Assembly: GCF_014874095.1 (NCBI RefSeq)
Contig: NZ_JADBEB010000001.1
Location: 558,001 to 622,000, forward strand
Reading direction: 5' to 3'
DNA from: Plantactinospora soyae
GTDB lineage: Bacteria; Actinomycetota; Actinomycetes; Mycobacteriales; Micromonosporaceae
Length of the DNA: 64,000 nt
In this document: positions 11,452 through 57,645 of the stretch, piece by piece
Position numbering within the stretch: the stretch's first letter is position 1
How the letters are laid out: every line of letters starts with the position of its first letter
The notes under the pieces: model-generated
Databases searched by the model: none
Told to the model about the DNA's origin: nothing
What the model saw: only the letters and a program-made list of their open reading frames with translations
Position numbers and translations under genes: made by a program

Positions 11452-11505
11452 GTTAGGAAGGGCCCCTTCCTATGCAAAAAGCGATAGGAAGGGGCCCTTC
11501 CTTAC
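11452..11505 (+). repeat. 54-bp palindromic element, copy 1
   Basis: Left arm GTTAGGAAGGGCCCCTTCCT, loop around GCAAAAAGC, right arm ending GGGGCCCTTCCTTAC. Each arm carries its own GGGCCC palindrome and the two arms are inverted repeats of each other. It lies 15 bases past the stop of the minus-strand DUF3499 gene. The same element recurs at 27654, 38949, 49075 and 57592. Confidence 0.9.
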
Positions 11506-11520
11506 AGCTACAGCTACAGG

Positions 11521-11889
11521 TCAGTGGCTGGGTGGGATGACGCGGAGGTGGCCACGGCGACCGGTCTGCTGGCCGGTGTTGGGGTCGACCCCGGCCTCGT
11601 CCGGGCGGGGCGGGGCCGGGCGGGCGGCCTCCCGGACCGCCTCGGCCAGCGCCACCAGGTCGTCGGTGGTCGGCGGTGGGGGCTCGAACTCCCCCTCGTG
11701 CCGGACCACGTCCCAGCCGCGCGGGGCCGTCAGGCTCCGGGCGTGCGGCTCACAGAGGTCGTACGTGTGCGGCTCAGCGAAGGCCGCGAGCGGCCCCACC
11801 ACGGCTGTCGACTCGGTGTAGACATAGGTCAGCGTGGCTACGGCCTGTCGGGGGCAGCCGTTGCGGGAGCAACGCCGTGGTGACCTCAC
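11521..11889 (-). CDS. DUF3499 family protein
   Basis: 122 residues. The N-terminal half reads RCSRNGCPRQAVATLTYVY and then YDLCEPHA, so two cysteines in CSRNGC and a Cys/His pair in CEPH could bind a metal. This is the actinobacteria-specific DUF3499 family, whose function is not known to me. The C-terminal third is acidic and proline-rich with low complexity. TACCGT lies exactly six bases upstream of the GTG, predicting a leaderless transcript. Its position beside the metallopeptidase and whiB2 genes is conserved in actinobacteria. Confidence 0.85.
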   Translation of the reverse strand: MRSPRRCSRNGCPRQAVATLTYVYTESTAVVGPLAAFAEPHTYDLCEPHARSLTAPRGWDVVRHEGEFEPPPPTTDDLVALAEAVREAARPAPPRPDEAGVDPNTGQQTGRRGHLRVIPPSH

Positions 11890-11895
11890 GGCGGC

Positions 11896-11901
11896 ACGGT
11901 A
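11896..11901 (-). promoter_or_regulatory. TACCGT -10 box of the DUF3499 gene
   Basis: Six bases separate TACCGT from the GTG at 11889, the spacing of a leaderless start. No Shine-Dalgarno sequence is present between them. Confidence 0.5.
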
Positions 11902-12023
11902 TCTCCATTACCGGCTCCGCCGCTCCGCTTGGGCTTCCGACACGCCGGTAGTGGTGATCACAATTCGGGCTCCCGCCTGGCGACACGGCCGAATCCACGA
12001 ACCGATCTTGATCGCGCCGGGTC

Positions 12024-12029
12024 TACCCT
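12024..12029 (+). promoter_or_regulatory. TACCCT -10 box of the metallopeptidase gene
   Basis: TACCCT ends six bases before the GTG at 12036. This favours that GTG as the start over the ATG at 12075. Confidence 0.45.
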
Positions 12030-12035
12030 GTCGTC

Positions 12036-12524
12036 GTGGGCGGGACGTTCACCACGAGTGAAGCGGGGTTCGAGATGACCAGTCCGGAGAATCGCCGGCC
12101 CGACCCCGGGCGCCGGTCCCGCCGGGATCGGCACGGGCGCGGGCTGCGCGGCCGGCTCGTCCCGGCCACGGTTCCGCTCGCCCGGACGAAGTCGGAGATC
12201 TTCGACGATCTGGTGCTGGACACCGTGGAGACCCTGGAACGGCGGTTCGCCAAGGAGCTGGCCGGGGTCGAGTTCGCGGTCGAGGACGTGCCGCCGGACC
12301 TGAACGTCTACGACTCGGACGTCCTGGAGGACGGCGAGGTGCCCCTCGCCCGCCTGCTGCCCGGTCGGCCCGGCCGGCAGGAGGTGCCGCCGAGGATCGT
12401 GCTCTACCGCCGCCCCCTGGAGTTCCGGGCGATAGACCGCGAGGACCTCGCCGACCTGGTACACGACGTGATCATCGAGCAGGTCGCGAACCTGCTCGGC
12501 GTCGATCCCGATGAGCTGGCCTGA
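12036..12524 (+). CDS. Metallopeptidase family protein (zincin-like, degenerate HExxH)
   Basis: 162 residues. It matches the actinobacterial family of small zincin-like proteins found beside whiB2: FDDLVLDTVETLERRFAKEL, then a variable region, then LVHDVIIEQVANLLGVD. The last block is where active members carry HExxHxxGxxD; here it reads HDVIIEQVANLLGVD, so the second metal histidine is absent and protease activity is doubtful. Start choice: GTG at 12036 has a leaderless -10 box six bases away, while ATG at 12075 has only a weak GGGG. The first 13 residues are therefore uncertain. It converges with whiB2, 33 bases apart. Confidence 0.75.
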   Translation: MGGTFTTSEAGFEMTSPENRRPDPGRRSRRDRHGRGLRGRLVPATVPLARTKSEIFDDLVLDTVETLERRFAKELAGVEFAVEDVPPDLNVYDSDVLEDGEVPLARLLPGRPGRQEVPPRIVLYRRPLEFRAIDREDLADLVHDVIIEQVANLLGVDPDELA

Positions 12525-12557
12525 CCCGGGCGGCCCCCACCACCCGGGCGCGGCCGG

Positions 12558-12815
12558 TCAGGCGACGCGACGCTTCAACTTGCGCCGTTCGCGTTCGGAC
12601 AACCCGCCCCAGATCCCGAACCGTTCGTCATGTCCGAGCGCGTATTCCAGGCACTCGGTCTTGACCTCACACCGGGAGCAGATCCGCTTCGCCTCGCGGG
12701 TCGAGCCGCCCTTCTCGGGAAAAAACGCCTCCGGATCGGTCTGCGAGCACAGCGCGCGCTCTTGCCACTCCGGAGCATTTCCGAGCAGGTCGGCCACCTC
12801 GAGTCGGCCGTCCAT
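12558..12815 (-). CDS. whiB2: WhiB-family iron-sulfur regulator (WhiB2/WhmD type)
   Basis: 85 residues. Four cysteines at 23, 46, 49 and 55 give the C-x22-C-xx-C-x5-C pattern that holds a 4Fe-4S cluster, followed by the GIWGG turn (67-71) and a basic C-terminus (RERRKLKRR) for DNA contact. SQTDPEAFFPEKGGSTREAK is typical of WhiB2/WhmD, the developmental and septation regulator that works with WhiA. AAGGAGG lies eight bases before the ATG. A good promoter is visible upstream. The gene order with the metallopeptidase and DUF3499 genes supports orthology. Confidence 0.92.
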   Translation of the reverse strand: MDGRLEVADLLGNAPEWQERALCSQTDPEAFFPEKGGSTREAKRICSRCEVKTECLEYALGHDERFGIWGGLSERERRKLKRRVA

Positions 12816-13163
12816 CCAGTTGCCTCCTTATCGCGCACCGGCGTGGCAGCCGGCGCAACCCCCCACGCGGAAGGCGTGTTTGTCCGTCCGGTAGCGATTT
12901 GATGCGCTCCGTACGAACGACCCCACTGAAATTACACGTGTGTTATACGTGCGTCGTCAAGCCGAACCTGCTAAGTGGAGTCACCCCTGCCGCGTGCCCG
13001 GACGACTGTGGAGTCATCGCGGTCTCGCAACCTGCCCTATCGATTCAGACCCGGCAGGGGTAACGCCCCGCTCGGCGAGTTGCGTCAGATATCGGCGTTT
13101 CGCGGCCGGCGCGCCCCGTGGCGTCCCGCGAACGGGTGTACCCGTGGATCGGGCCCGGAGGGG
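12816..13163. other. Gene-free stretch between whiB2 and fbiC
   Basis: 348 bases. It holds the whiB2 leader and promoter (12931-12960). Upstream of the promoter are 9-base inverted repeats ACCCCTGCC (12983-12991) and GGCAGGGGT (13053-13061), 61 bases apart. A tight dyad ACGGGT-GT-ACCCGT lies near 13133-13146, just past the fbiC stop. I see no supported gene here. Confidence 0.6.
12931..12960 (-). promoter_or_regulatory. whiB2 promoter overlapped by a TTACAC palindrome
   Basis: On the minus strand TTGACG (12955-12960) and TGTAAT (12931-12936) are 18 bases apart, a good vegetative-type promoter starting near 12924. The spacer and -10 are covered by TTACACGTGTGTTA (12932-12945), a near-perfect dyad. 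Its half-sites resemble the BldD half-site TNACNC, but the spacer is two bases rather than one, so BldD control is only a suggestion. Confidence 0.5.
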
Positions 13164-15719
13164 TCAACCGGTGTGCCCGTAGACCGTGGTACGCCGTCGG
13201 GCCTGCCGTCCGGCCGCCGTCGCGATCCGCTCCAGCTGGGCGACGGTACGCGCCGAACCATGGTCCGATCCCGCCATCCGGGAGATCGTCTCCTCCATCA
13301 ACGTGCCGCCGAGGTCGTTGCAGCCGCCCCGGAGCAGTTCCGCCGTTCCGGAGTCGCCGAGCTTGACCCAGGAGCACTGGATGTTCGCGATCCGCCCGTG
13401 CAGCAGCAGCCGGGCCATGGCGTGCACGATTCGGTTTTCCCGCCAGGTGGGACCCGGTCGGGCGATCCCGGCGAGGTAGATCGGGGCGTTCGTGTGTACG
13501 AACGGCAGGCCGACGAACTCGGTGAACCCGCCGGTACGGTCCTGCAGCCCGGCCAGCACCCGGAAGTGTCCCAGCCACTGTCGGGGGTGGTCGACGTGGC
13601 CGTACATCATCGTGGAGCTGGACCGGATGCCCAGCTCGTGCGCGGTGCCGACCACCTCGACCCAGGTGGCGGCCGGCAGTTTGCCCTTGGTGAGCACCCA
13701 GCGCACCTCGTCGTCGAGGATCTCCGCCGCCGTGCCGGGGATGGTGTCCAGGCCGGCGTCGCGCAGCTCGGTGAGCCAGTCCCGGACCGGTACGCCCGCC
13801 TTGGCGGCACCGGTGACGATCTCCATCGGCGAGAAGGCGTGCACGTGCATGCCCGGCACCCGGGCCTTGATCCCCCGGACCAGCTCCGCGTACGCCGAGA
13901 CCGGCAGTTTGGGGTCGATCCCGCCCTGCATGCAGACCTCGGTGGCGCCGGCCGCCCAGGCCTCCTCGGCCCGGTCCGCGACCTGCCGGGCGGAGAGCCG
14001 GTACGCGTCGGCGTCCCGCTCCCGCTGGGCGAACGCGCAGAACCGGCAGCCCACGTAGCAGACGTTGGAGAAGTTGATATTGCGGTTCACCACGTACGTC
14101 ACGTCGTCGCCGACCGCCGCCCGGCGGACGTCGTCGGCGATCCGGCACACCTCGTCCAGGTCCGCCCCGTCGGCGCCGAACAGCGCCAGCGCCGCCGCCT
14201 CGTGCCGGGGCTCCAGCAGCGCGGCCGGGTCGTCGCCGGCCAGCCGCAGTCCGGCGCGCAGGTCGGAGTCGCCGCCGGCCGGCACCCCGCCCGGGACCAG
14301 CGTCCGCTCGCCGAGCGCCGCAGCGGGCACCGCGCCGGGAATCCGGGCACCGACCTCGGCCCAGTCGCCGTAGACCTGGTCGAAGTCGCCGCGCCGGTCA
14401 CCGGTCCGCCCGGTGGTGTCGATCGTGGCGTGCAGGTCGACCCGACCCCCCGGCACGAAGGCGTCGTCCGGCTCCTGCCAGGGACGACCGGTGGGACGGG
14501 CGTCGGCGACCCCGAGCCCGGTGACCGGGTCGGCGAGCGCGGCCACGTGGGCGGCGAGCCGGGGGTCCAGCCACGGATCGCCGCGCCGGACGTACTCGGG
14601 GTAGATCGTCAACCGCTCCTGGAGGGTGAACCCGGCCGCCTCGGACCGGGCCGCCAACTCGTCCAGATGCGGCCAGGGACGCTCCGGGTTGACGTGGTCC
14701 GGGGTCACCGGCGACACGCCGCCCCAGTCGTCGATGCCGGCCCGCAGCAGGAGGTCGAACTCCCCCTCGATCAGGTTCGGCGGCGCCTGGATCCGGGCTC
14801 CCGGGCCGAGCAGGATCCGGGACACCGCCACCGTGGCCGCCAGGTCGTGCAGTTCCGCGTCGGGCATCCCGCGCATCGCGGTGTCCGGCTTGGCCCGGAA
14901 GTTCTGCACGATGACTTCCTGGATGTGGCCGTACTCCCGGGCACTGCGCCGGATCGCGAAGATCGAGTCGACCCGCTCGGCGAGCGTCTCACCGATGCCG
15001 ATCAGGATGCCGGTGGTGAAGGGCACGGCCACCCGCCCGGCGTCGGCGAGCACCCGCAGCCGTACCGCGGGTTCCTTGTCCGGCGAGCCGTAGTGCGGCC
15101 CGCCGGGCTCGGACCAGAGCCGGGTGGCGGTGGTCTCCAGCATCATGCCCATGCTCGGCGCGACCGGCTTGAGCCGTTGCAGCTCCGCCCAGGAGAGCAC
15201 GCCGGGGTTCAGGTGCGGCAGCAGGCCGGTCTCCTCGAGTACCGCGATCGCGCACGCCCGCAGGTAGTCCAGGGTCGAGTCGAAGCCACGCTCGGTCAGC
15301 CACTGCCGGGCCTGCGGCCAGCGCTCCTCCGGCCGGTCGCCGAGGGTGAACAACGCCTCCTTGCAGCCCTGCGCCGCACCCGCCGCCGCGATCGCCAGCA
15401 CCTCGTCCCGCTCCAGGTAGGCGGCGGGCAGCCGGTGCGGCACGGTCGCGAAGGTGCAGTAGTGGCAGCGGTCCTGACAGAGCCGGGTCAGTGGGATGAA
15501 GACCTTCTTGGAGAAGGTGACCACCCCGGGCCGCCCGGCATCGACCAACCCGGCGTCCCGCAGCCGGCCGGCGATGGCCAGCAACTCGTCGAGGAACTCG
15601 CCGCGCGCGGCGAGCAGCGCCGCCGCCTCGTCCGGGTCGAGGGCCCGGCCGTCCGCCGCCCGGCGCAACGCCCGGCGCAGACTCGCGGTGGTCGGCGCCC
15701 CGTCAGTCCCATCAGCCAC
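13164..15719 (-). CDS. fbiC: Bifunctional FO synthase (CofG and CofH fused)
   Basis: 851 residues containing two complete radical-SAM halves. The first (CofG) has CQDRCHYC with Cys81, Cys85 and Cys88; the second (CofH) has CYVGCRFC with Cys554, Cys558 and Cys561. Each binds a 4Fe-4S cluster and S-adenosylmethionine. Together they condense tyrosine with 5-amino-6-ribitylamino-uracil to form FO, the deazaflavin chromophore of coenzyme F420. The two-domain fusion is the actinobacterial form. The GTG at 15719 has TAGGCT six bases upstream, a leaderless layout. It lies 1.3 kb from cofD-cofE, so chromophore and tail genes are near each other. Confidence 0.95.
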
Positions 15720-15725
15720 TCGTGC

Positions 15726-15731
15726 AGCCTA
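15726..15731 (-). promoter_or_regulatory. TAGGCT -10 box of fbiC
   Basis: Six bases separate TAGGCT from the fbiC GTG at 15719, predicting a leaderless mRNA. Confidence 0.5.
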
Positions 15732-15843
15732 GGCCGTGGAACCGGCCGGACGGCGCCCGGCGGCCCCTGGTCCGGGCCCGGACCGGGTGGCAACGGTCAC
15801 AGCCCTCGGGAGGATGGACCCGCGTCCATCCTCCCGATCCGGC

Positions 15844-16911
15844 TCAGTGCTGGCGCGGCTGGGTCGGGTCGTCGTCCCGGTCGGCCGGCGGCGGCTGGAT
15901 GCCCGCCGACGGCTGCTGGCTGGCCGGATTGATCCGCTGGGTGCGGTCGGCGGTGCGCTGCGGGATCACCTGGGTCCGGCCCTCCTCCTCTTCCTCGTCC
16001 GGCTCGGGGGCGACCGACGGGGCGGGGCCGGCCGACGGCGGCGCCGAGACGGGCCCGGCGGGCGTGCCTGCGGACCCCGGCGCCCCGAACGGAGCGGCCG
16101 GCGGCGCGGACGCGGGCGGAGCCGAGGCGGGCGGGGCGGAGGCGGGCGGGGCCGAGGCCGGGATACCGGAGACCGGTTGGCCGTAGGCGGCCGGCTGGGC
16201 GTAGCCGGTGGGCTGCGGGTAGCCGGCCGGCTGGCCGAAGTCGGTGGGCTGGCCGTAGACCGTCGGCTGGCCGTAGACGTTCGGGTCGCCACCCTGACCC
16301 TGCGGGTAGCCGGCCGGCGGGTAGCCCGGCTGGCCGTACGGCTGCTGACCGTACGGCGGCTGGCCGTAGGGCGGCTGACCGTACGACTGGGGCTGGCCGT
16401 AGAGACCCGGCTGCGGCTTCGGCTTGGGTACGTAGAAGAGCGTCCGCCACACCCGGAAGACCACGAAGGCCGCGGCGGCGAGCAGGGCGAAGGCTCCGCC
16501 CATCAGCAGAAGTCCGGTGAACGCCCGCCGGAACTCCGTGTCGGCCAGCAGGCTGAAGATCCCGGCGAGGAGGGTCACCAGGCCGAACAGCGCCGAGAAG
16601 GCGTACTCGCCGAGCGCCACGAGGGTGATCACCCGGGCGCGACCGACCACCGGCTGGATGTGCGTCGCGAGCAGCACGGCGAGCACCGGAAGGGCGGTCT
16701 GCTCGATGCCCACGAAGCCGTAGAAGGCGCTCAGGGACCGGTCGCCGAATTCGGAACCCTCCCAGCCACCGAAGAACAACTCGATCATCCCGGCGAACAG
16801 GAACAGCGCGTTGGCGCCGAGCAGCACGAACGCGATCAACTCGCGTAACGGCTTGGTTGTCTGGCTGGCCTGCGGCGCGTCGGTCGGCGCGGGCCCGGGC
16901 TGGCTGGTCAA
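15844..16911 (-). CDS. Four-helix membrane protein with Tyr-Gly-Gln-Pro-rich cytoplasmic tail
   Basis: 355 residues. About four hydrophobic helices occupy residues 24-155. The tail is low complexity: PYGQP-type repeats (about 172-250), four ASAPP repeats (about 250-270) and an acidic EPDEEEEEGRTQVIPQ segment. I recognise no enzymatic domain. Such proteins are common in Micromonosporaceae and may be scaffold-like. The start is TTG at 16911, favoured by GAGGGGGAA just upstream. It is divergent from cofD with about 100 bases between. Confidence 0.7.
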   Translation of the reverse strand: MTSQPGPAPTDAPQASQTTKPLRELIAFVLLGANALFLFAGMIELFFGGWEGSEFGDRSLSAFYGFVGIEQTALPVLAVLLATHIQPVVGRARVITLVALGEYAFSALFGLVTLLAGIFSLLADTEFRRAFTGLLLMGGAFALLAAAAFVVFRVWRTLFYVPKPKPQPGLYGQPQSYGQPPYGQPPYGQQPYGQPGYPPAGYPQGQGGDPNVYGQPTVYGQPTDFGQPAGYPQPTGYAQPAAYGQPVSGIPASAPPASAPPASAPPASAPPAAPFGAPGSAGTPAGPVSAPPSAGPAPSVAPEPDEEEEEGRTQVIPQRTADRTQRINPASQQPSAGIQPPPADRDDDPTQPRQH

Positions 16912-17010
16912 AATTCCCCCTCAGGCAGTTTACGGACGGTGGCGACGCCTGAGCCTAGTCGGCGAACCCGCCCGCCGCCCGCGCGGAGCGGATGGGCGAG
17001 GATGGTGACC

Positions 17011-17982
17011 ATGCGCATCGTGGTATTGACCGGGGGCATCGGCGGCGCTCGCTTCCTGACCGGCGTACGCGCGTACGCCGGTCAGGTCGGCGCCGAGGTG
17101 ACCGCGGTGGTCAACGTCGGTGACGACGTACTGCTGCACGGGCTGAAGATCTGTCCGGACCTGGACAGCGTCATGTACACCCTCGGTGGTGGGGCGGACC
17201 GGGAACGGGGCTGGGGACGGGCCGGCGAGACCTGGACGGTCAAGGAGGAGCTGGCCGCGTACGGCGCGGAGCCGACCTGGTTCGGTCTCGGTGACCGGGA
17301 CGTGGCGACCCACCTGGTCCGCAGTTCGATGCTGGGCGCCGGCTATCCGCTCTCGGCGGTGACCGAGGCGCTCTGCGCACGCTGGCAACCGGGCGTACGC
17401 CTGCTGCCCGCCACCGACGACCGCCTGGAGACCCACGTCGTGGTGAGCGGACCCGACGACGGTACGACCGACGCCCCCGACGCCCAGCGCGCCATCCACT
17501 TCCAGGAGTGGTGGGTACGCCACCGGGGCGCACTGCCGACCCACCGCTTCGTCTTCGTCGGCGCCGAGGCGGCCAAGCCGGCGGCGGGGGTGCTGGACGC
17601 GCTGGCCGAGGCGGATGTCGTGCTGCTCGCCCCGAGCAATCCGGTGGTGAGCGTCGCGCCGATCCTCGCCGTGCCGGGGATCCGGGAGGCGCTGGTCGCC
17701 GGCACCGCGCCGGTGATCGGAATCTCCCCGATCATCGGTGGTGCCCCGGTACGCGGCATGGCCGACCGCTGCCTGGCGGTGCTCGGGGTGCCGTGCACCG
17801 CGGCCGGGGTGGGCGGGCTCTACGGTCCCCGCTCGGCCGGTGGCATCCTGGACTCCTGGCTGGTGGACACCGCCGACGCCGGTGCCGAGGTCCCGGGCCT
17901 GACCGTGCGGGCGGCACCGCTGTGGATGACCGACGAGGCGGCGACCGCGACGATGGTCCGGACCGCGATGGAGCTGGCATGA
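17011..17982 (+). CDS. cofD: 2-phospho-L-lactate transferase (CofD/FbiA)
   Basis: 323 residues, family length. The N-terminal MRIVVLTGGIGGARFLTG is the CofD nucleotide/FO binding loop, followed by VNVGDDVLLHGLKICPDLD that holds the metal-binding aspartates. The enzyme transfers the phospholactate-type (or phosphoenolpyruvate-derived) moiety to FO to give F420-0 or its dehydro form. The ATG at 17011 is chosen because the conserved strand begins there; ATG at 17002 is in frame three codons earlier. Its stop overlaps the cofE start as ATGA, so the two are translationally coupled. Confidence 0.93.
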   Translation: MRIVVLTGGIGGARFLTGVRAYAGQVGAEVTAVVNVGDDVLLHGLKICPDLDSVMYTLGGGADRERGWGRAGETWTVKEELAAYGAEPTWFGLGDRDVATHLVRSSMLGAGYPLSAVTEALCARWQPGVRLLPATDDRLETHVVVSGPDDGTTDAPDAQRAIHFQEWWVRHRGALPTHRFVFVGAEAAKPAAGVLDALAEADVVLLAPSNPVVSVAPILAVPGIREALVAGTAPVIGISPIIGGAPVRGMADRCLAVLGVPCTAAGVGGLYGPRSAGGILDSWLVDTADAGAEVPGLTVRAAPLWMTDEAATATMVRTAMELA

Positions 17983-19133: not shown

Positions 19134-19180
19134 CCGGTCCGGCCCGGTCGGCCGCCGTGCCTGGTGGCGGGCGGTGGTGG

Positions 19181-21541: not shown

Positions 21542-21547
21542 GGGATC

Positions 21548-27653: not shown

Positions 27654-27707
27654 GTAAGGAAGGGCCCCTTCCTATCGTTTTCTGTAGAAGAAGGGCCCCT
27701 TCCTAAC
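27654..27707 (-). repeat. 54-bp palindromic element, copy 2
   Basis: Reads GTAAGGAAGGGCCCCTTCCT, then a TATCG-TTTTC-TGTAG loop, then a right arm ending CCTAAC on the plus strand; the inverted orientation relative to copies 1, 3 and 4. It lies between the thioesterase stop (27722) and the acetoacetate-CoA ligase start (27503), both minus-strand genes. Confidence 0.9.
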
Positions 27708-38948: not shown

Positions 38949-38996
38949 AGGGGCCCCTTCCTATGCAAAAAGCGATAAGAAGGGGCCCTTCCTTTC
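38949..38996 (+). repeat. Palindromic element, copy 3, left end truncated
   Basis: Starts at GGGGCCCCTTCCTATGC, loop AAAAAGC, right arm GATAAGAAGGGGCCCTTCCT; about eight outer bases of the left arm are missing and replaced by DUF397 coding sequence (TTGGAG). It lies five bases past the M14 peptidase stop at 39001. Confidence 0.85.
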
Positions 38997-39000: not shown

Positions 39001-41850
39001 TTACGCGACGACGGAGCGCAACGGAATACCGGCTGCGCGGAGTTCGCGTACCAGGTCGCGGAGGAACGGGTGCTCGTCCGACGACAGGCCCTGTGGGTTG
39101 GGGATGGTCAGGTAGGCCGAGCCGTTTGCCGTGTTGATCCGGGCGTCGGCGGTGTGCCGGGCGACGATCGCCCGGGTCCGGTCGAGGTCGGCGGCGGCCA
39201 CCTGGACGCTGATCGGCCGCCATTCACCGCCCAGGTTCTCCGGCTGCGGCGCCGCCGCTGCCGAGGCCCGAGCCGACGGTACGGCCGGAGCCGTCGCCCG
39301 CGCCCCCGGTGACGCCGAGGCCGTACGCGGTGCCAGCAGTGCGTTGGCGACCAGGTGCAGGCCACTCTCGTTGTACGCCCGGAACAGCGGGTTGAACGCG
39401 AACAGCACCGCCCTGCCCGCGCCGGTGGGTTCGTCGACCAGCGCCACCGTGCCCTTGAGCGCGTCCGCGTGCACGGTGTAGCCGTTGAGCCAGAACCGGT
39501 CGTCGGCCGGGTACCGCAGCACGTTCGTCCCGGTCGTGCTCGGGCTCAGGATCGAGTCGTTGTTGTTGAACTCGAAGTCCTCGGCCGGCCGGCCCAGCCC
39601 CACCGGGCTGCTCCGGTCCACGTCGACCCGCAGGTGCGAGCCGATCACCGTGTAGTCGGCCGGCTTCGCCACCTCGGTCGTCGAGGTCAGTCCGGCCGCC
39701 CGGGCCATCCGGGTGCCCTGGTTACGCAGCCCGAGGTAGGTGCCGCCGCCGGCGACCCAGGCCCGCAGGTTGGCCTGCCCGGCGGCGGTGAGCCCACCGG
39801 TCGGGTTGCTGCCGTCCGGAACCAGCAGGACGCTCCGGCCGGTGAACGCCGACGTGTTGTCGTTGACGTCCGCCGTGGTCACCGGCTTGAGGTCCAGGCC
39901 CCACCGGTTGCCGAGCACGTACCGGGCCTCGCCGTGCGAGCCGGAGGTGGTGGAGATGCCGGTGCCGGCGTACAGGCCGACGTCGGGAAGGGCCAGCGCG
40001 GTCCCGCTTGCCGGGGTACGGCGAGCGGTCAGGGTCACCCCGAGCGACTCGGCCAGCTTGTCGCGGGTACCGGTCAGGCTGGCCGCCGGCAGGGTGACGA
40101 CGCCGGTGGTCTGGTCCCGGCGCAGTTCGACGCCCGCGCCGAGGAGCGCGAAGGTGAGTTCGGCCGCCGCCGCGGAGTCGAGCGGGTACGCGTACGAGCC
40201 GTGCCTCGGCGCGCCGCCGTCCCGCCCGCCGTCGATGTCGCGGACCCGTTCCGCCTTCGGGGAGAGCCGGTCACCGGTGTAGACCGTCTGTACCCCCATC
40301 AGCAGCGGATTGCTCCAGGACGAGACGTCGTAGAAGTACGGGAACGGGACGTACGGGTCCTCGCCCATGATCGCCTGGATCCAGTGCTTCTGCGGCTGGT
40401 CCATCGGGATCCAGTAGGCGCCCTCCGGCACCGTCAGGTTCCGGGCCGACCGGCCGCCGAAGATCCGCGCGTTCGGCACCTTCACCGAACGGGTCAGCTC
40501 GTACACCTCGACGTCCATCCGGCGCAGCCGCTCGACGAGCTGCCGTACGTCACCGAGCTGCCGATCCGGCAGCAGGAAGTACGACCGGACGGTGATGTCC
40601 GGAACCGGGAACTGGACCTCGTTGGTCGGCTGGACCACCTCGTTGGGCTGCAACGCCCCGGCCCGGCCCTCGGCGAGGGCGTCGGACCAGATGTCGTAGT
40701 AGCCGGAGAGCACCTCACGCTTGTTGGCCGAGGCCCAGCCGATGGTGGCCCACTGGGTGTTGAACTGCTGCTGCACCCGGTCCGGGACCGCCGACGAACT
40801 GCCCTTCTCGTACGTCATCCCGGCGGCGCCGAAGCCGGTGGCCGGCACCGTGTCGCCGTACCCCATGAAGAACATGTCGTAGGTGTCGTAGTTGAAGTAG
40901 CACTCGGTGGTGACCGTCTCGGTGCAGGCGCCGTTGTAGCCGAAGCCGGCCGCGTTCGCCGCGCCGATCCGGTTGATCCAGTCGACCGACTCGTCGGAGA
41001 TCTCGTGGTGGATCGGGTCGGCGTTCGGCGGGAAGAAGTACTCCCGGCCGCCCATCTCGTGCGCGTCGATGAAGACCTGCGGCGGGTACGTCCGGAGCAG
41101 TTCGACCTTGGCGTCGGTCTCCGGCTGGGTCCGGGCGAACCAGTCCCGGTTCAGGTCGAAGCCGTACTCGTTCTGCCGCCGGGTGGCGTCCCGGCCGTCC
41201 GGGTTCTGGGTCGGCACGATGATCGTGACGAGGTTGTCGTTGCGCTCCCGTACGTCGCAGGAGAGGCCGGCGGCCAGCTCGTACAGCGTCTTGAGCGCGG
41301 CGTCGCCCCCGGACTTCTCGCCGCCGTGCACGTTGCCGGTGACCCAGACGATCGCCGGGCCCTTGGCGGCGGTCTCGGCCGCCTTCCGCTCGGACAGCTT
41401 GCGCGGGTCGCGCAGCGCCCGGACGTCCTCGGCGATCTCGGCCAGCTCACCGCGGCGGAGGTGGCTGGAGTCCGAGACGATCGCGTACGGCATCGACTGG
41501 CCGAGGACGCTGTTGCCGAGGTTGCCGGTGATCACCCGGTCGGAGGCGCCGTCCACGGCCGTCAGGTAGGAACGGATCTCGTCGTCGGTGACGACCCGTT
41601 CCTGGCCGACCCCGAGCGGGAAGCCCAGATGGCTCTCCGGACTCGGTACGTCGGCCAGCCGGGCCGTCGGGTCCTGGCTGCACCCGTTCGGGCTGGACGG
41701 GCCGCCGGGGTGGGCACCGGCCGGCGTGCCGGACAGCAGCGACAGCGGGGCGAGCAGGATCGCGGCGGCGGCCACACCGCCCAGTCGCCGGGCCAGGACC
41801 GAGTTCGGAGGCTTCGGAGGGAAGTGCGGGGGGAACTTCGAAAGTGTCAT
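39001..41850 (-). CDS. Secreted M14-family zinc carboxypeptidase-like protein
   Basis: 949 residues. A signal peptide (VLARRLGGVAAAAILLAPL to about residue 47) is followed by an M14 domain: zinc ligands His175 and Glu178 in GNVHGGEKSGG, His264 in FIDAHEMGG, substrate arginine in LNRDWF, and catalytic Glu348 in GMTYEKG. The C-terminal 400 residues include a Rossmann-like GATase-type region and a low-complexity Ala/Pro segment. The protein is exported and should trim C-termini. The ATG at 41850 is chosen over 41874 for its AAGGGAAG site and promoter distance. Its last 12 residues are echoed by the remnant at 36622. Confidence 0.88.
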   Translation of the reverse strand: MTLSKFPPHFPPKPPNSVLARRLGGVAAAAILLAPLSLLSGTPAGAHPGGPSSPNGCSQDPTARLADVPSPESHLGFPLGVGQERVVTDDEIRSYLTAVDGASDRVITGNLGNSVLGQSMPYAIVSDSSHLRRGELAEIAEDVRALRDPRKLSERKAAETAAKGPAIVWVTGNVHGGEKSGGDAALKTLYELAAGLSCDVRERNDNLVTIIVPTQNPDGRDATRRQNEYGFDLNRDWFARTQPETDAKVELLRTYPPQVFIDAHEMGGREYFFPPNADPIHHEISDESVDWINRIGAANAAGFGYNGACTETVTTECYFNYDTYDMFFMGYGDTVPATGFGAAGMTYEKGSSSAVPDRVQQQFNTQWATIGWASANKREVLSGYYDIWSDALAEGRAGALQPNEVVQPTNEVQFPVPDITVRSYFLLPDRQLGDVRQLVERLRRMDVEVYELTRSVKVPNARIFGGRSARNLTVPEGAYWIPMDQPQKHWIQAIMGEDPYVPFPYFYDVSSWSNPLLMGVQTVYTGDRLSPKAERVRDIDGGRDGGAPRHGSYAYPLDSAAAAELTFALLGAGVELRRDQTTGVVTLPAASLTGTRDKLAESLGVTLTARRTPASGTALALPDVGLYAGTGISTTSGSHGEARYVLGNRWGLDLKPVTTADVNDNTSAFTGRSVLLVPDGSNPTGGLTAAGQANLRAWVAGGGTYLGLRNQGTRMARAAGLTSTTEVAKPADYTVIGSHLRVDVDRSSPVGLGRPAEDFEFNNNDSILSPSTTGTNVLRYPADDRFWLNGYTVHADALKGTVALVDEPTGAGRAVLFAFNPLFRAYNESGLHLVANALLAPRTASASPGARATAPAVPSARASAAAAPQPENLGGEWRPISVQVAAADLDRTRAIVARHTADARINTANGSAYLTIPNPQGLSSDEHPFLRDLVRELRAAGIPLRSVVA

Positions 41851-49052: not shown

Positions 49053-49074
49053 GGTGTCAGCAAGGCGCTGACGT

Positions 49075-49128
49075 GTTAGGAAGGGCCCCTTCTTCTACAA
49101 AAAGCGATAAGAAGGGGCCCTTCCTTAC
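49075..49128 (+). repeat. 54-bp palindromic element, copy 4
   Basis: Left arm GTTAGGAAGGGCCCCTTC, loop region TTCTACAAAAAGCGATAA, right arm GAAGGGGCCCTTCCTTAC. It fills the gap between two convergent genes. Its last bases (TTAC at 49125-49128) contain the purE stop codon. Confidence 0.9.
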
Positions 49129-49625
49129 ACCTGTTCCTGCAGTGCGGCGTCCTTCCGAGCGACCAGTTCCTCCAGCTCGGCCTGGTACGCCGACATCCGG
49201 TTCCGGAGCGTCTCGTCGGAGGCGGCGAGGATCCGCACCGCGAGCAGGCCGGCGTTGCGTCCGTTGCCGATCGAGACGGTCGCCACCGGGACGCCGGCCG
49301 GCATCTGCACGATCGAGAGCAGCGAGTCCAGGCCGTCGAGGTGCTTGAGGGCCACCGGAACGCCGATCACCGGCAGCGGGGTGGCCGCCGCGACCATGCC
49401 CGGCAGGGCCGCGGCACCGCCCGCACCAGCGATGATCACCCGGATGCCCCGATCGGCGGCGGTCTTCGCGTAGTCGATCATCTTGACCGGGGTGCGGTGC
49501 GCGGAGATGACACCTACCTCGTACCCGATCTCGAACTCGGCCAGGGCCTCGGCGGCAGCGCGCATCGTGGGCCAGTCCGAGTCACTCCCCATGATCACGC
49601 CGACCGTGGGTGCCACCTGCGTCAC
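49125..49625 (-). CDS. purE: N5-carboxyaminoimidazole ribonucleotide mutase (PurE class I)
   Basis: 166 residues. [24 protein letters not shown] and [25 protein letters not shown] are the substrate-binding motifs of class I PurE, including the catalytic His in SAHRTP. It moves the carboxyl group of N5-CAIR to give CAIR in purine synthesis. The GTG at 49625 overlaps the purK stop as GTGA, which fixes the start over an upstream GTG at 49649. The stop TAA is read from the edge of palindromic element copy 4. Confidence 0.95.
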
Positions 49626-50797: not shown

Positions 50798-50810
50798 AGC
50801 GGGCGCAAGC

Positions 50811-52811
<2,001 letters not shown>

Positions 52812-52817
52812 CCGACG

Positions 52818-52823
52818 ACCATA
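52818..52823 (-). promoter_or_regulatory. TATGGT -10 box of the DUF255 gene
   Basis: Six bases from the GTG at 52811; leaderless arrangement with no Shine-Dalgarno. Confidence 0.5.
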
Positions 52824-52926
52824 ACCTCCCCGACCCGCCACCGCCGGTACGACGGCGGCACAGTCCGGGGCGCCCCGCTACCGGCCAGCTGCCGGTGGAC
52901 GCCTGCTTCATCGTCCGGCGGAGTCG

Positions 52927-55521
52927 TCAGGAGGCGCCGTCGGCCCGGAGCGGGAAGATCCGGACCTGCGCGGAGTCGAGCAGTGACCGGAGCACAGCGA
53001 CGATCTTGTCCGAGGGCATCGGCCGGAAGAAGTGGTAACCCTGCGCGGCCGTACAGCCCAGCTCGGCGAGCGCGGCCCGCTGGTCGGCGGTCTCCACCCC
53101 CTCGGCGACCACCCGCAGACCCAACTCGCGTCCGAGGTCCACGGTGGTACGCACGATGGCCGCCGCCTCCGGCGAATCCGCCATCCGCATCACGAACGAC
53201 CGGTCGACCTTGAGTTCGTCGACCGAGATCCGGGTCAGGAAGGTCAGCGACGAGAAGCCGGTGCCGAAGTCGTCGACGGCGCGTTGCACGCCCATCGCGC
53301 GCAGCGCGGAGAGCACCTCGTCGATGACCTCCAGCTCGCTCATCACCACCGTCTCGGTGATCTCCAGGACGAGCCGGCGGGCCGGTACCTGGTGCCGGCG
53401 CAGCGACTCGGCCACCTCGGCCGGCAGTCGCGGATCGAGCAGGCTACGGGCCGAGAGGTTGATCGAGATCGGTACGTCGAGACCATGTCGCGCCCAGTCG
53501 GCGGCAACCCCGAGGGCCTTGTCGACGACGTACCGGGTGAACGCGCCGAGCAGTTCGCTGCCCTCGATCGTCCGGACGAAGTCGACCGGATTCAGCCGGC
53601 CCCGGCGGGGATGCCGCCAACGGATCAACGCCTCCACCCCGGTCGGCTCCCCGGTGCAGAGGTCGACCGCCGGTTGGAGGGCCAGTTCGAGCTGGTCGTC
53701 GACGTCGAGCGCCTCCCGCAGCTCGGCGAGCAGGGCGAGCTTGTCGGTGCTGGCCGCGTCCCGGGCGCTGTCGTACGACGCCACGCTGCCGCCGCCCTGC
53801 TTCGCCTGGTACATCGCGATGTCGGCCCGGCGCAGCAACTCCGTCATGTCGGCCGTACCGGCGCCGGCCACCACCACTCCGACCGACACCTCGACCGACA
53901 TCCGTACCCCGGCCACCTCGATCGGGGTGGCGAGCAGTTCGACGATCTCGCGGGCCCGCCGCAGCACGTTCGGCATCGGGGAGCGCTCGGCTCCGGTACC
54001 CGGCTCGGACAGCACGGCGGGCGACGGGATCAGCAGGGCGAACTCGTCGCCACCGAGCCGGCCGAGCAACTCGCCCGGCCGGACCAGGATGTCCAACCGG
54101 TCCGCCGTCGCCTGGAGCAGCTCGTCACCGGCCGCGTGCCCGAGGGTGTCGTTCACCTCTTTGAAGTGGTTGATGTCGAGCAGCAGCAGCGCCACCGGAT
54201 GGTCGTGGCCGAGCTGGTGCAGCGCGACGTCGCCCTTGCTCAGCAACGCCGCCCGGTTGATCAGGTTGGTCAGCGCGTCGTGCACCGCCTCGTACGACGA
54301 TCGCGCCGTCACCAGCCGCAGCTCGCGGTGCGTCGCCGCGTCGTGCAGCGCGGCCGCCAGCGCGTCGCCGAAGGCCGACAGGGCGTCATGTTCGCGCTGC
54401 TGGGGAGGTATCGCCCGGGGCAGCCGGACCCGCAACTCGCCAACCTGGACGGTGCCGACCATCAGCGAACGGACCAGCTCCTGGTCGGTCCGTTCGCCGG
54501 ACTCGGGCCGATCGGTCCCGATCAGGTCGCGGTGTACCACCGGCCGACCCGGCTCGCCCCGGTAGCGCCGCCACCGGCCGTCGCCGCGCGGCACGTCCAC
54601 CTCGACCCGCTCCGCCCCGAACAGGGACAGCGGGCCGGTCACCCCGGCCGTCGCGACCCCGTGCTCGTCCAGCTGGTTGAGCGCGCCGGTGGCCTCGGCA
54701 AGGGCCCGCCAGGCGCGGCGCTCGTCGTCGGCCCGCAACCGATGGCTGTACGTCTGTTGCAGCAGCCACAACACCGGCGGCAGGAGCAGCAGCCAGCGTA
54801 GGTCGTGCTCGACCACGGCCACGACGGCCAGCCCGACGAGCACGTTGCCGACGAACATCAGCAACTTGCCCTGGAGTGCCCGCAGCAACGCCGGGCCGAG
54901 CGGCACCGCGTGCTTGAGCGAGAGGGTGAGCCCGGCGACTCCGGTGGTGGTCAGCAGGTAGGTCAGCGATCCGGTGGCCAGCGCGGCGATCAGTTGTGGC
55001 GTCAGTGCGGTGCCGACCGGCGCGCTCAGCACGTCCGTGGCGGAGGCACCCAGCGCGACGAGCGCACCCAGGGTGGCGGCGGTGGCCAACGCCACGCCGG
55101 TCGCCAGCGCGGCGGTGGTGTGTACGACGTCGAGCGCGGACCGCTGGTCGACGAAGATGGTCATCAGGGCCCAGGCCAACCCCGCACCGACGAGGGCGGC
55201 GGCCGGCAGCCAACCGGGCGGCACCAGGGCCAGGCCGATGATGAAGGCCGCCTCGCCCCAGGTGACACTGACTATGCCGGCGCCGACCCGGAACCTGAGC
55301 CGGAAGAGCTGCGCGACCGCCACCACCGCAGTGGCGATGCCGAGTCGGGCCAGGGGCGGCAGCGGGTCGTCAGCCGGCAGTTCCGTGGTGATCAGGAACC
55401 CGGACGCGGCGCTGCCCAACGCGAGCGCCAGCGCGGTGAAGGTGAGCACGCGGACCCGGCGAGGTGCCGCCGTGACGCCGACCAGATCGCGGAGACGTTC
55501 CAGCCGGCGACCCGAGATCAC
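52927..55521 (-). CDS. Membrane-bound GGDEF-EAL protein (diguanylate cyclase/phosphodiesterase)
   Basis: 864 residues. About seven membrane helices (residues 20-270) lead into a GAF-like linker, a GGDEF domain and an EAL domain. The cyclase motif LGGDEF (489-494) is intact; the product-inhibition site five residues before it is RPGE (481-484), with Glu for the usual Asp. The EAL domain keeps Glu630 in VEALIRW, NLSARSL, LEITET, DDFGTGFSSL and AEGVET, so hydrolysis of cyclic di-GMP is also expected. Which activity dominates cannot be told. Cyclic di-GMP controls BldD and thus development in actinomycetes, a plausible link with whiB2 here. Confidence 0.92.
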   Translation of the reverse strand: MISGRRLERLRDLVGVTAAPRRVRVLTFTALALALGSAASGFLITTELPADDPLPPLARLGIATAVVAVAQLFRLRFRVGAGIVSVTWGEAAFIIGLALVPPGWLPAAALVGAGLAWALMTIFVDQRSALDVVHTTAALATGVALATAATLGALVALGASATDVLSAPVGTALTPQLIAALATGSLTYLLTTTGVAGLTLSLKHAVPLGPALLRALQGKLLMFVGNVLVGLAVVAVVEHDLRWLLLLPPVLWLLQQTYSHRLRADDERRAWRALAEATGALNQLDEHGVATAGVTGPLSLFGAERVEVDVPRGDGRWRRYRGEPGRPVVHRDLIGTDRPESGERTDQELVRSLMVGTVQVGELRVRLPRAIPPQQREHDALSAFGDALAAALHDAATHRELRLVTARSSYEAVHDALTNLINRAALLSKGDVALHQLGHDHPVALLLLDINHFKEVNDTLGHAAGDELLQATADRLDILVRPGELLGRLGGDEFALLIPSPAVLSEPGTGAERSPMPNVLRRAREIVELLATPIEVAGVRMSVEVSVGVVVAGAGTADMTELLRRADIAMYQAKQGGGSVASYDSARDAASTDKLALLAELREALDVDDQLELALQPAVDLCTGEPTGVEALIRWRHPRRGRLNPVDFVRTIEGSELLGAFTRYVVDKALGVAADWARHGLDVPISINLSARSLLDPRLPAEVAESLRRHQVPARRLVLEITETVVMSELEVIDEVLSALRAMGVQRAVDDFGTGFSSLTFLTRISVDELKVDRSFVMRMADSPEAAAIVRTTVDLGRELGLRVVAEGVETADQRAALAELGCTAAQGYHFFRPMPSDKIVAVLRSLLDSAQVRIFPLRADGAS

Positions 55522-55707
55522 GGATCGCCGCCGTTCGTCAGCCGCCGTTGCGCGACGTGTCCGGCCCGCGGATGGCGTTGGGCGTCGGGTCTGGTAATCA
55601 TTCGGCGCCCCCTTCCGCGCACGGTGCGGGGACTTTTGGTCCCCCGGCGGAAGGCTAAGCCAATCCGATTCGGCGCAACAGAGGGCGCCGGGTCGGATTA
55701 GCGTGAA

Positions 55708-56010
55708 TCATGGCGCGGAAGGGCTGTTCCGATCCAGCTGAGGGGTATTGGGAGCGCTTCCATCAGATTCCTCCGGCCCGGCCGCCCCGTCGGGCTCGGA
55801 ACCGGTCGGATCCGCCTCGTCCGCCTCGTCGGCCCGCTGCTCCGGAAACCGGTCGGGCAGCCGGCGCAGCCGGGCGTTCATGTTGCGGATCAGCAGCACG
55901 GTGACGATGGCCAGCACAGTGATCATGAAGAGGCCCATCGGCCCCGCCAGGCCACCGGTCCGGGTGTCACCGAAGTTGTTCTCCGCGAGCACCTGTGCGG
56001 CGGTCAGCAT
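55708..56010 (-). CDS. Small single-helix membrane protein beside mca
   Basis: 100 residues. One membrane helix (PMGLFMITVLAIVTVLLIRN, residues 24-43) is followed by a basic segment and an acidic, disordered tail. It follows mca on the minus strand, 57 bases downstream, and the same kind of small gene accompanies mca in mycobacteria. Function unknown. The ATG at 56010 has GGAGG upstream. Confidence 0.75.
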   Translation of the reverse strand: MLTAAQVLAENNFGDTRTGGLAGPMGLFMITVLAIVTVLLIRNMNARLRRLPDRFPEQRADEADEADPTGSEPDGAAGPEESDGSAPNTPQLDRNSPSAP

Positions 56011-56067
56011 GGCAGGAATCCTCCGATGTGCGGTCTGTCCACTCCCTTACGGTACGCCTGTCACCAG

Positions 56068-56949
56068 TCAGCGGGCATGCATGGTCTCGCGTACCCCGGC
56101 GAACAGGTCGGACTCGGGCATCGGGCTGTCGACCACCGAACGGGCCAGCTCGAAATCCTCGGTCGGCCAGGCCTGCCGCTGCAACTCCATCGGGACGTGG
56201 AACCAGAAGCCGTCCGGATCGACCTGGGTCGCGTGCGCCCGCAGCGCGTCGTCGCGGACCGGGAAGTAGGAGGAGCACTCGACCCGGGTGGTGATCCGGG
56301 GACCCTTGTCGACCCGACCCTCCCAGCGCTCCAGCCACTCCGCGTACGGCGACTCCTTGCCGAGCGCCAACATGCCCTCGTGCAGCGCGGTGATCTTGGC
56401 CTTGGAGAAACCGATGTCGTAGTAGAGCTTCAACGGCTGCCACGGGGTGCCCAGCTCGGGAAAGCGCTCGGGGTCACCCGCCGCGTCGAACGCCGCCACG
56501 CTGACCTTGTGGCACATGATGTGGTCGGGGTGCGGGTAGCCACCCTCCTCGTCGTACGTGGTCACCACATGCGGCCGGAACTCGCGCATCAGCCGGACCA
56601 GCGGACCGGCCGCCACCTCCACGTCCTGCAGCCCGAAACATCCCTCGGGCAACGGCGGCAGCGGATCCCCCTCGGGCAGCCCCGAGTCGACGAATCCCAG
56701 CCAGGCCTGATCGACGCCGAGGATGGCCCGCGCCGAGTCCATCTCCGCCCGGCGGATCTCGGCGATGTTGGCCCAGACGTCCGGCCGGTCGAGTTTCGGA
56801 TTGAGGACGCTGCCCCGCTCGCCGCCCGTACACGTGACGACAAGGACCTGCACGCCTTCGGCGACGTATTTCGCCATGGTCGCCGCGCCCTTGCTCGACT
56901 CGTCGTCGGGATGGGCGTGGACGGCCATCAGACGTAGCTGCTCTGCCAA
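56068..56949 (-). CDS. mca: Mycothiol S-conjugate amidase
   Basis: 293 residues, LmbE/PIG-L fold. [14 protein letters not shown] holds the first zinc ligands (His13, Asp16) and [13 protein letters not shown] the third histidine. The enzyme cleaves mycothiol conjugates of drugs and electrophiles so that the mercapturic acid can be exported; the second paralogue MshB has a different context. The start is TTG at 56949 with a weak GGGAG 11 bases upstream; ATG eight codons later is less likely because [13 protein letters not shown] is conserved from there. It is divergent from DUF4307. Confidence 0.95.
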
Positions 56950-57148
56950 CTCCGGTGTGCTCCCTCGTCGCGCCTGGCCGGACCGGCTCGACCTGGCGAA
57001 CCGTCCGACCCTCTCGCCGACCCGCCGTCAGGTCGGCCGTTTTGGCCTTCTGAACGACCTGCCACACTCGGCCCGGCCGTCAACTGAGAAGATGGACTTA
57101 CCCATTCTTGCCGATGCCACCGACATCAGTCCCAGGAGATCGCCGCCG

Positions 57149-57583
57149 GTGCCCGAGACGCCCGCCACATTCGCACCTGCCGCCCCGGTGTTCCCACCCG
57201 GCCGGTACGGCCACCGACGCGCGCCCCGACGGCGCCGACCCTGGGTCGCGGGCCTGCTGGTGGTCGCCCTGCTGGCGGTGATGGGCGCGGTCTCGTACCG
57301 GCTCTACCGGCAGTACGGCGACCCCAACTACGACGCCCAGGTGATCACCTACACCGAGATCACCGAGTCGCAGCTGGTACTCGACTTCCGGGTGACCGTA
57401 CCGGCCGGCGGCTCGGCGATCTGTGTGGTCCGGGCCCGCTCCCGGGACGGCGCCGAGGTGGCCCGCGAGGAGTTGCGGGTGACCGCCGAGCCCGGACAGC
57501 GGCACCTGACCGCCCGGCACCGGCTCGTCACCACCGGCCGGGCGATCCTGGGCGAGGTCGTCCGCTGCCGACCCACCAGCTGA
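57149..57583 (+). CDS. DUF4307 membrane protein
   Basis: 144 residues. A basic proline-rich N-terminus (FPPGRYGHRRAPRRRR) is followed by one membrane helix (WVAGLLVVALLAVMGAVSY) and an extracytoplasmic domain with TYTEITESQLVLDFRVTVPA, the DUF4307 core. A conserved cysteine pair (Ile-Cys-Val and Arg-Cys-Arg) may form a disulfide outside the cell. Its place divergent to mca and before greA is conserved in actinobacteria. The GTG at 57149 has AGGAG upstream; an in-frame ATG at 57092 would add 19 residues. Confidence 0.85.
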   Translation: MPETPATFAPAAPVFPPGRYGHRRAPRRRRPWVAGLLVVALLAVMGAVSYRLYRQYGDPNYDAQVITYTEITESQLVLDFRVTVPAGGSAICVVRARSRDGAEVAREELRVTAEPGQRHLTARHRLVTTGRAILGEVVRCRPTS

Positions 57584-57591
57584 ACCAGCCG

Positions 57592-57645
57592 GTAAGGAAG
57601 GGCCCCTTCTTATCGCTTTCTGTAGAAGAAGGGCCCCTTACTAAC
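57592..57645 (-). repeat. 54-bp palindromic element, copy 5
   Basis: Reads GTAAGGAAGGGCCCCTTC on the left, TTATCGCTTTCTGTAGAA in the loop region, then GAAGGGCCCCTTACTAAC. One base in the right arm (TTACTAAC for TTCCTAAC) is changed. It lies eight bases after the DUF4307 stop, on the plus strand side of the greA gene. Confidence 0.9.

What the first reader, a model, noticed from the sequence alone, without database searches (positions are those of the whole stretch)
11452..57645. Five copies of an unrecognised 54-bp double-palindrome element
Copies at 11452-11505, 27654-27707, 38949-38996 (truncated), 49075-49128 and 57592-57645 share one design: an inverted repeat whose two arms each contain a further palindrome around GGGCCC, joined by an A-rich loop (CARAAARC). 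Four copies are complete, start GTTAG and end CTTAC. Three are in plus and two in minus orientation, and all lie at gene ends, 5 to 25 bases past stop codons. The right half is nearly invariant while the left half exists in two forms (CCTATGC and TTCTACA), which suggests spread by copying rather than chance. Three of the four complete copies are preceded by GGGTG. Read through in frame they give recurring peptides such as KGPFL, likely to appear in mis-annotated proteins. It behaves like a REP or MITE family, or a mobile transcription terminator, but it has no T-run.
Basis: partly seen in the sequence, partly recalled or inferred. Interest (0 to 1): 0.75.

Follow-up and report, generated by a model that had tools for sequence, protein, structure and literature searches.

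The report
Stop-codon-docked palindromic repeat family
A roughly 60-base hairpin-forming DNA repeat, present in well over a hundred copies in this soil actinobacterium, mostly sits flush against the stop codons of genes and tends to stand in place of their original ends; it resembles the REP repeats of other bacteria but shows no link to the enzyme thought to spread those.

Summary
The five copies are real and belong to a large family: 168 matches genome-wide at up to 3 mismatches, 0 for the reversed-pattern control, in a Plantactinospora-group genome. It occurs patchily in Micromonosporaceae (47 of 300 genomes, strict pattern). Its conserved end lies within -6..+5 nt of a gene's stop codon in 82 of 117 copies read, against 2.3% expected for uniform insertion. 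Compared with a congener poor in the element, 31 of 41 such genes keep exactly the same C-terminal length: the element sits at the native stop, and between convergent genes usually fills the gap. Sites are shared with P. alkalitolerans (36 of 36 mapped, biased sample), yet copies carry lineage-specific variants, i.e. concerted evolution. No consistent target duplication, no half-copies in the 18% of the genome read, no association with the REP transposase RAYT. Verdict: a RAYT-independent, REP-dimer-like family acting at mRNA 3' ends, most likely as terminator/3'-end hairpin or stop-proximal ribosome brake. New variant of a known kind; function unproven.

The parts
11452..11505 (-). Copy 1, complete; sense strand is minus; its stop-proximal end faces the DUF3499 gene ending at 11521, 15 nt away
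27654..27707 (+). Copy 2, complete; sense-5' end not docked; [quoted passage not shown] present in G104, absent in G092, G058, G113, G032, G078
38949..38996 (-). Copy 3, truncated at the stop-distal end; 4 nt after the stop of the M14 peptidase-like gene ending at 39001; present in G104
49075..49128 (-). Copy 4, complete; overlaps the stop codon of the AIR carboxylase-domain gene; present in G104 and G113, absent in G032, G058, G092, G078
49125..49127 (-). TAA stop codon of the AIR carboxylase-domain gene, supplied by the GTAAG end of copy 4
57592..57645 (+). Copy 5, complete; starts 8 nt after the stop of the DUF4307 gene ending at 57583; in G104 the stop of the same gene lies inside the element (TAA); absent in G092, G032, G058, G113, G078
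11457..11469 (.). Self-palindromic arm GAAGGGSCCCTTC, example; the partner arm is at 11488-11500

Best explanation
The element is a high-copy, REP-dimer-like (REPIN/BIME-like) palindromic repeat of Micromonosporaceae: two inverted self-palindromic arms around a short loop. Shown by sequence: its conserved end is mostly docked at the native stop codons of genes, between convergent genes it usually stands in place of the native 3' intergenic sequence, sites persist between species, and the copies carry lineage-specific variants at shared sites. Inferred: it works as RNA, folding into a very stable hairpin that starts about 0-10 nt after the stop codon; that hairpin defines and protects the mRNA 3' end and limits read-through between convergent genes (a near-symmetric, two-way terminator or 3'-end stabiliser), and being so close it probably also slows the terminating ribosome, as stop-proximal REPs are reported to do in E. 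coli. Also inferred: new copies arose by a RAYT-independent copying process, and existing copies are overwritten by recombination or gene conversion between repeats. The copying enzyme and the reason for the exact docking are unknown.
For: Copy number 168 against 0 control. Docking 82 of 117 against 2.3% expected, and 82 against 20 between the two ends. In other genomes 53 of 85 copies dock by the sense-5' end and 19 of 85 by the other end (2 of 87 loci dropped for lacking a clear orientation). C-terminal length equals the G032 orthologue in 31 of 41 genes, 9 are shorter by 1-9 codons, 1 is longer by one. In 16 convergent pairs (1 more dropped for a 1,698-nt G032 gap) the G032 gap has a median of 53 nt, while in G000 a median of only 8.5 nt lies outside the element; it is shorter than the G032 gap in 14 of 16. 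Hairpin energies -46.7 and -55.7 kcal/mol on two typed consensus forms. Concerted evolution: sense position 20 T:C is 66:0 in P. alkalitolerans and 56:41 in G000, position 3 is 58:2 and 50:32 (one duplicate copy removed), although 36 of 36 P. alkalitolerans copies that map to the fetched G000 stretches share the site; 35 orthologous pairs differ at 4.17 of 56 positions against 5.66 for shuffled pairs. REPs within 15 nt of a stop are reported to stall ribosomes (passages of PMC12306157), and GTAG-REP ends often supply a stop codon (passage of PMC3733652).
Against: No expression, termination or ribosome data. There is no U-tract after the hairpin (CCUAACACC follows). Outer stem pairing is imperfect: at position -3 the commonest combination is an A-A mismatch, 78 of 112 copies, so a perfect long hairpin is not strictly kept. 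24 of 117 copies have no gene end within 150 nt of the conserved end; 2 lie inside predicted genes and 7 between divergent genes. G113 shows no end asymmetry (5 and 6 of 15). In 2 of 16 convergent pairs G000 keeps more spacer than G032. Gene calls are from a simple codon-usage caller. Stable hairpins are common after stops in this GC-rich genome anyway (42 of 45 and 55 of 60 ordinary gene ends, 38 of 45 and 54 of 60 shuffled controls; starting within 8 nt in 11 of 45 and 11 of 60). The sharing test is biased, because most fetched stretches were centred on copies. Recurrent mutation at a few two-state positions is an alternative to conversion.
Confidence: 0.6

Rival explanations
1. A classical MITE: terminal inverted repeats of a DDE insertion sequence, moved by its transposase, and tolerated only next to stop codons because insertions elsewhere are purged.
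For: Inverted-repeat design, high copy number, presence/absence differences between congeners. The ends carry stop codons, so insertion near a gene end is tolerated; 9 of 41 genes are shortened by 1-9 codons.
Against: No consistent target duplication (top by z-score: a 5-mer shared by 3 of 116 copies; largest fraction among the 12 printed combinations: a 3-mer in 8 of 116). No solo ends in 1.72 Mb. Uniform insertion into gaps with a gene end predicts about 2.3% docked, not 82 of 117. The native gap is lost rather than enlarged in 14 of 16 convergent pairs.
Confidence: 0.12
2. Ordinary terminators that look alike by convergence, without copying.
For: Location at gene ends; hairpins with GGGCCC cores and pyrimidine-rich 3' arms also turn up, weakly, in other actinobacterial families (L340, L341, L343).
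Against: 168 closely similar copies including the loop, 0 for the control; congeners G032, G058 and G092 have only 13, 4 and 2 mostly weak model hits at E up to 0.01; window sites differ between relatives.
Confidence: 0.05
3. A DNA site: each self-palindromic arm binds a protein (nucleoid, gyrase or repair factor) and gene ends are simply a permissive place.
For: Both arms are themselves palindromes; uneven distribution along the chromosome.
Against: The docking is asymmetric in G000 (82 against 20 between the two ends) and stop-codon exact, which a DNA site does not need. G113, however, shows no asymmetry.
Confidence: 0.12
4. Random insertion into 3' regions followed by deletion of the spacer down to the stop codon (deletion bias), so docking is secondary.
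For: At copy 5, G000 has 8 nt between stop and element, while in G104 the stop lies inside the element, fitting a short deletion between CCAGC repeats. Native gaps have mostly been lost.
Against: Few intermediate distances (11 of 117 copies at 6 nt or more); the other end is not packed equally tightly (20 of 117); preferred spacings at -5 and +2.
Confidence: 0.2

Closest known systems
REP / BIME elements of E. coli, especially stop-proximal REPs (PMC12306157: abstract, outline and passages seen)
   Same: Short palindromes at high copy, extragenic, downstream of genes; a subset within 15 nt of the stop codon reported to lower translation.
   Different: Here 117 of 118 places are a fixed-length dimer and 82 of 117 lie within -6..+5 nt of a stop; the paper gives 446 of 4,072 predicted E. 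coli REPs within 15 nt, and 260 of 496 proposed as translational regulators in an earlier study. Sequence relation not tested.
GTAG- and CGTC-tagged REP families and dimers (PMC3733652: passages seen)
   Same: Inverted dimers, gene-end location, convergent enrichment; termini of GTAG REPs often supply a stop codon to the flanking ORF.
   Different: Outer ends are mostly GTAAG, GTTAG, GCAAG or GAAAG, not GTAG or CGTC; no solo units found; no association with RAYT.
REPIN-RAYT systems (PMC3116915, PMC8049555: search listing with start of abstract only; further features recalled)
   Same: Hairpin of two inverted REPs acting as one unit; within-genome sequence population.
   Different: Y1_Tnp was not found in 11 of the 14 element-rich genomes tested, this one included.
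Neisserial DUS inverted pairs as terminators (PMC2397512: passages seen)
   Same: Repeated inverted signals that double as terminators and whose spread is tied to gene conversion.
   Different: The DUS is a 10-12 nt uptake signal; no uptake role tested here.
MITEs, and SPRITE, the pneumococcal rho-independent terminator-like element (PMC10969869: passages seen)
   Same: Small dispersed inverted repeats, some terminator-like.
   Different: No consistent target duplication and no parent element found here.

Membership tests
REP / REPIN | Short palindromic repeat, many copies, mainly extragenic and downstream of genes | tested here: met
REP / REPIN | Units also paired as inverted dimers | tested here: met
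   every full copy is an inverted pair of arms
REP / REPIN | Single units exist beside dimers | tested here: not met
   117 full copies, 1 partial hit, no solo arm in 1.72 Mb (18% of the genome; the rest unread)
REP / REPIN | Conserved GTAG or CGTC tag at one end of the stem | tested here: not met
   Outer ends are GTNAG or similar; an internal GTAG before the second arm is seen in part of the copies only (sense position 35 G:T 68:28 in G000, 28:39 in P. alkalitolerans)
REP / REPIN | Cognate RAYT (Y1 transposase) in the genome | tested here: not met
   0 in own genome (control rings in 6 of 14 reference genomes); 3 of 14 element-rich, 1 of 6 element-poor
MITE | Target-site duplication | tested here: not met
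   no offset with a duplication in more than 8 of 116 copies among the 12 best printed
MITE | Terminal inverted repeats shared with an autonomous insertion sequence | tested here: inconclusive
   No solo ends in 1.72 Mb; the rest of the genome was not read
Intrinsic terminator | Stable GC-rich hairpin after the stop codon | tested here: met
Intrinsic terminator | U-tract after the hairpin | tested here: not met
   CCUAACACC follows in the consensus
Intrinsic terminator | Transcripts end there | not testable with these tools
   no RNA data
Rfam RNA family | Match above a curated gathering score | tested here: not met
   six loci searched; best match 33.8 bits to a microRNA family with gathering score 99

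The most novel reading that the evidence does not exclude
A stop-codon-addressed repeat: new copies are installed exactly at the native stop codon, replacing the gene's own 3' end, by a process coupled to translation termination or mRNA 3'-end formation (for example through an RNA intermediate or an mRNA cut at the A site) rather than by a sequence-specific transposase, and are then kept uniform by conversion between copies.
Probability: 0.15. Interest if true: 0.88.

Novelty: new variant of a known kind. Interest (0 to 1): 0.56.

Why it matters
Why REP elements sit so close to stop codons, and how they spread, is unsettled. This family gives an unusually clean case: one fixed-length unit, over a hundred sites, most docked to within a few bases of the native stop, congeners with and without it, and no association with the usual transposase. 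It makes directly testable whether such repeats are selected as gene-end devices (termination, ribosome braking, mRNA protection) or are addressed to stop codons by their copying mechanism, and whether dispersed terminators evolve in concert. Practically, it affects C-terminal annotation (stop codons supplied by the repeat) and perhaps draft assembly in Micromonosporaceae.

Tried and rejected
Malformed first pattern, one base too long (1 match); corrected. Cognate RAYT: rejected. MITE with target duplication: rejected (102 combinations of offset and length had at least 3 copies with a shared word, none consistent). Copy-specific complementarity of the flanks beyond the element: none (-16.7 against -16.5 +/- 0.39 for shuffled partners; second window -17.5 against -17.4). 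Tandem duplications hugging the element: striking by eye at a few copies but not above a shuffled control (left 8 against mean 3.7, maximum 8; right 5 against mean 3.0, maximum 7). attC-like recombination site: set aside by eye from recalled attC features, because the GTT core points the wrong way; not tested by call. Known RNA family: none reached its gathering score. Viral contigs, exact pattern, plasmids and phages, one consensus: no match. Literature: no paper of the held PMC subset holds the arm sequence; none of the papers listed ties this repeat to Micromonosporaceae by title or abstract; these listings were capped. Hairpin position of ordinary gene ends: uninformative, because shuffled GC-rich sequence folds as well. 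Low linkage between variable sites fits recombination but also recurrent mutation at two-state positions; the lineage-specific shifts at shared sites are the stronger evidence.
Full report
Observation. The arm motif is far above chance in the window (13 matches against a shuffled mean of 2.1, ten of them the copies' arms). In the window's genome (G000, 9,715,930 bases, one contig) a pattern for the whole unit finds 168 matches at up to 3 mismatches, 89 on one strand and 79 on the other, and none for the reversed-pattern control. An exact scan of a public genome collection finds 76 stretches: 66 in Plantactinospora alkalitolerans, 6 in Micromonospora echinofusca MPMI6, 3 in M. sp. HM5-17 and 1 in M. 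okii. Within Micromonosporaceae a strict double-arm pattern is present in 47 of 300 genomes and 7 of 44 genera, from 1 to 121 copies, and differs sharply inside the window's own genus: 121, 75, 16 and 15 copies in four genomes and 0 in three. Looser patterns give 27 and 25 matches in G113 and G078, and 194, 121, 43 and 24 matches in genomes of four other genera (some fully palindromic copies match on both strands and count twice). With looser limits the model finds 13, 4 and 2 places, mostly weak (E up to 0.01), in the element-poor congeners G032, G058 and G092.

Anatomy. I read 1.72 Mb of G000 (18%): the window, loci and stretches around listed copies, and 20 evenly spaced stretches. A profile search gives 118 places: 117 full-length and 1 partial, no solo arms. 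Flank conservation decays outwards but reaches CTGAGGTG on one side and CACCTCAG on the other. Two typed consensus forms fold to -46.7 and -55.7 kcal/mol. Pairing of the arms is uninformative because the patterns imposed it; just outside, the commonest combination at position -3 is an A-A mismatch (78 of 112).

Docking. Placed against predicted genes, the conserved end lies within -6..+5 nt of a stop codon in 82 of 117 copies, farther (6-122 nt) in 11, and without a gene end within 150 nt in 24; the other end docks in 20 of 117. Uniform insertion into gaps that contain a gene end would dock 2.3% (binomial p about 1e-105), and the asymmetry between ends has p about 4e-10. Two spacings dominate: at -5 (25 copies) the TAA of the GTAAG end is the stop codon in most, and at +2 (21 copies) a stop, mostly TGA, stands two bases before TGYAAG; in 8 copies at -3 TGA abuts AAGG directly. 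Of 117 copies, 57 lie between convergent genes, 51 between codirectional ones, 7 between divergent ones and 2 inside predicted genes. Convergent placement is enriched against 49 of 296 background pairs (odds ratio 4.95). In other genomes 53 of 85 copies dock by the sense-5' end and 19 of 85 by the other (2 of 87 loci dropped; one search found none of the family-wide loci to be a G000 copy or a repeat of another locus). G113 alone shows no asymmetry (5 and 6 of 15).

Empty sites. For 41 docked-side genes I could compare the orthologue in congener G032 (44 flanks were queried, and the window's own region was also at hand). 31 have exactly the same C-terminal length, 9 are shorter by 1-9 codons in G000 and one is longer by one. 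So the element was put at, or trimmed to, the native stop: either the native stop is kept and the element follows within a few bases, or the element's TAA takes its place with a changed last residue. At sites 2655326 and 3365029 (and by eye 1225925) G032 itself carries a related, divergent hairpin. In 16 convergent pairs (a 17th was dropped for a 1,698-nt G032 gap) the G032 gap has a median of 53 nt (range 7-268), while in G000 a median of only 8.5 nt lies outside the element; the G000 remainder is shorter than the G032 gap in 14 of 16 and longer in 2 (1245858, 2630855). Mostly, then, the element stands in place of the native sequence.

Age and concerted evolution. In the window region copies 2 to 5 are shared with G104 (flanks mostly 88-95% identical); at copy 1 the G104 contigs break, so it is unresolved; copy 4 is also in G113; a profile search of the fetched orthologous stretches finds no copy in G032, G058, G092 or G078. 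36 of 36 distinct P. alkalitolerans copies that map by both flanks to the fetched G000 stretches have a G000 copy within 200 nt. Four of four mapped G078 sites and four of five mapped G113 sites are occupied in G000, but only 1 of 5 mapped relics of G032, G058 and G092 and 0 of 2 mapped sites of more distant genera. This sharing test is biased because most fetched stretches were centred on G000 copies. At 35 shared sites copies differ by 4.17 of 56 positions, only modestly less than randomly re-paired copies (5.66 +/- 0.21, minimum 5.0 in 1000 shuffles). Sense position 20 is T in 66 of 66 P. alkalitolerans copies but C in 41 of 97 in G000; position 3 is C in 2 of 60 against 32 of 82 (exact-pattern copies with T or C there). 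Many sites occupied before the split have thus changed in parallel in one lineage. Among pairs of variable sites with p<0.001, r2 is at most 0.27. Conversion between copies is the simplest account; recurrent mutation at a few permissive positions is not excluded.

Mobility. There is no consistent target duplication. Y1_Tnp (RAYT/IS200) was not found in G000 (the control rings in 6 of 14 reference genomes) and is uncorrelated with the element (3 of 14 element-rich, 1 of 6 element-poor). No match in viral contigs, plasmids or phages. What copies the element is unknown.

Mechanism. Shown: dispersed copying, docking at native stops, loss of native gene ends, lineage-specific variants at shared sites. 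Inferred: a function at the mRNA 3' end. A hairpin starting 0-10 nt after the stop must meet the terminating ribosome; for E. coli, REPs closer than 16 nt to the stop are reported to stall ribosomes and lower translation (passages of PMC12306157), and GTAG-REP ends often supply the stop codon (passage of PMC3733652). Near-symmetry and convergent placement suit a two-way terminator, although the U-tract is missing. I commit to a gene-end RNA hairpin (terminator or 3' stabiliser, probably also a ribosome brake).

Known or new. It works like a REP dimer at gene ends. As a member of the REP family it fails the tested tag, single-unit and RAYT features, so I call it a RAYT-independent REP-like family, a new variant of a known kind. 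No paper holding the arm sequence was found (PMC subset), and no listed title or abstract tied it to Micromonosporaceae (capped listings).

Noticed in passing
G000 positions listed: Copies are unevenly spread: 96 exact-match positions typed from the list depart from uniform (KS p 3.5e-7), with very few between about 5.2 and 8.3 Mb. Cause not established (core against accessory region, or replichore).
   Followed up: partly
L145:14961, L146:7190, L242, L252, L255, L257 (congener G032): Congener G032, poor in this element, has a different dispersed repeat, GACTGTCGAGCTG, in places with inverted partners, including the gap that holds copy 4 in the window.
   Followed up: partly
L340 and L341 (two genomes of another family of the class): A hairpin of similar design, GAAAGGAAGGGCCCCGCTCC..GGAGCGGGGCCCTTCCTTTC, with a TGA abutting it in L340. 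Gene context not checked.
   Followed up: no
G104 contigs C221 end and C418 start: In the draft assembly of the closest relative the flanks of copy 1 lie on two contigs, near their ends, so the repeat may fragment draft genomes.
   Followed up: no
window 57692-57715: CGATAAATSACGTGGCGTCC is kept in 5 of 7 congeners, with one or two changes in G113 and G078, while the rest of that gap is not conserved; a possible regulatory site upstream of the gene at 57784.
   Followed up: no
L288 (G113), L017 (G000): Short tandem repeats directly beside some copies (CGCTGAGGTGTAG-like, CGTTAGG-like); overall not above a shuffled control.
   Followed up: yes
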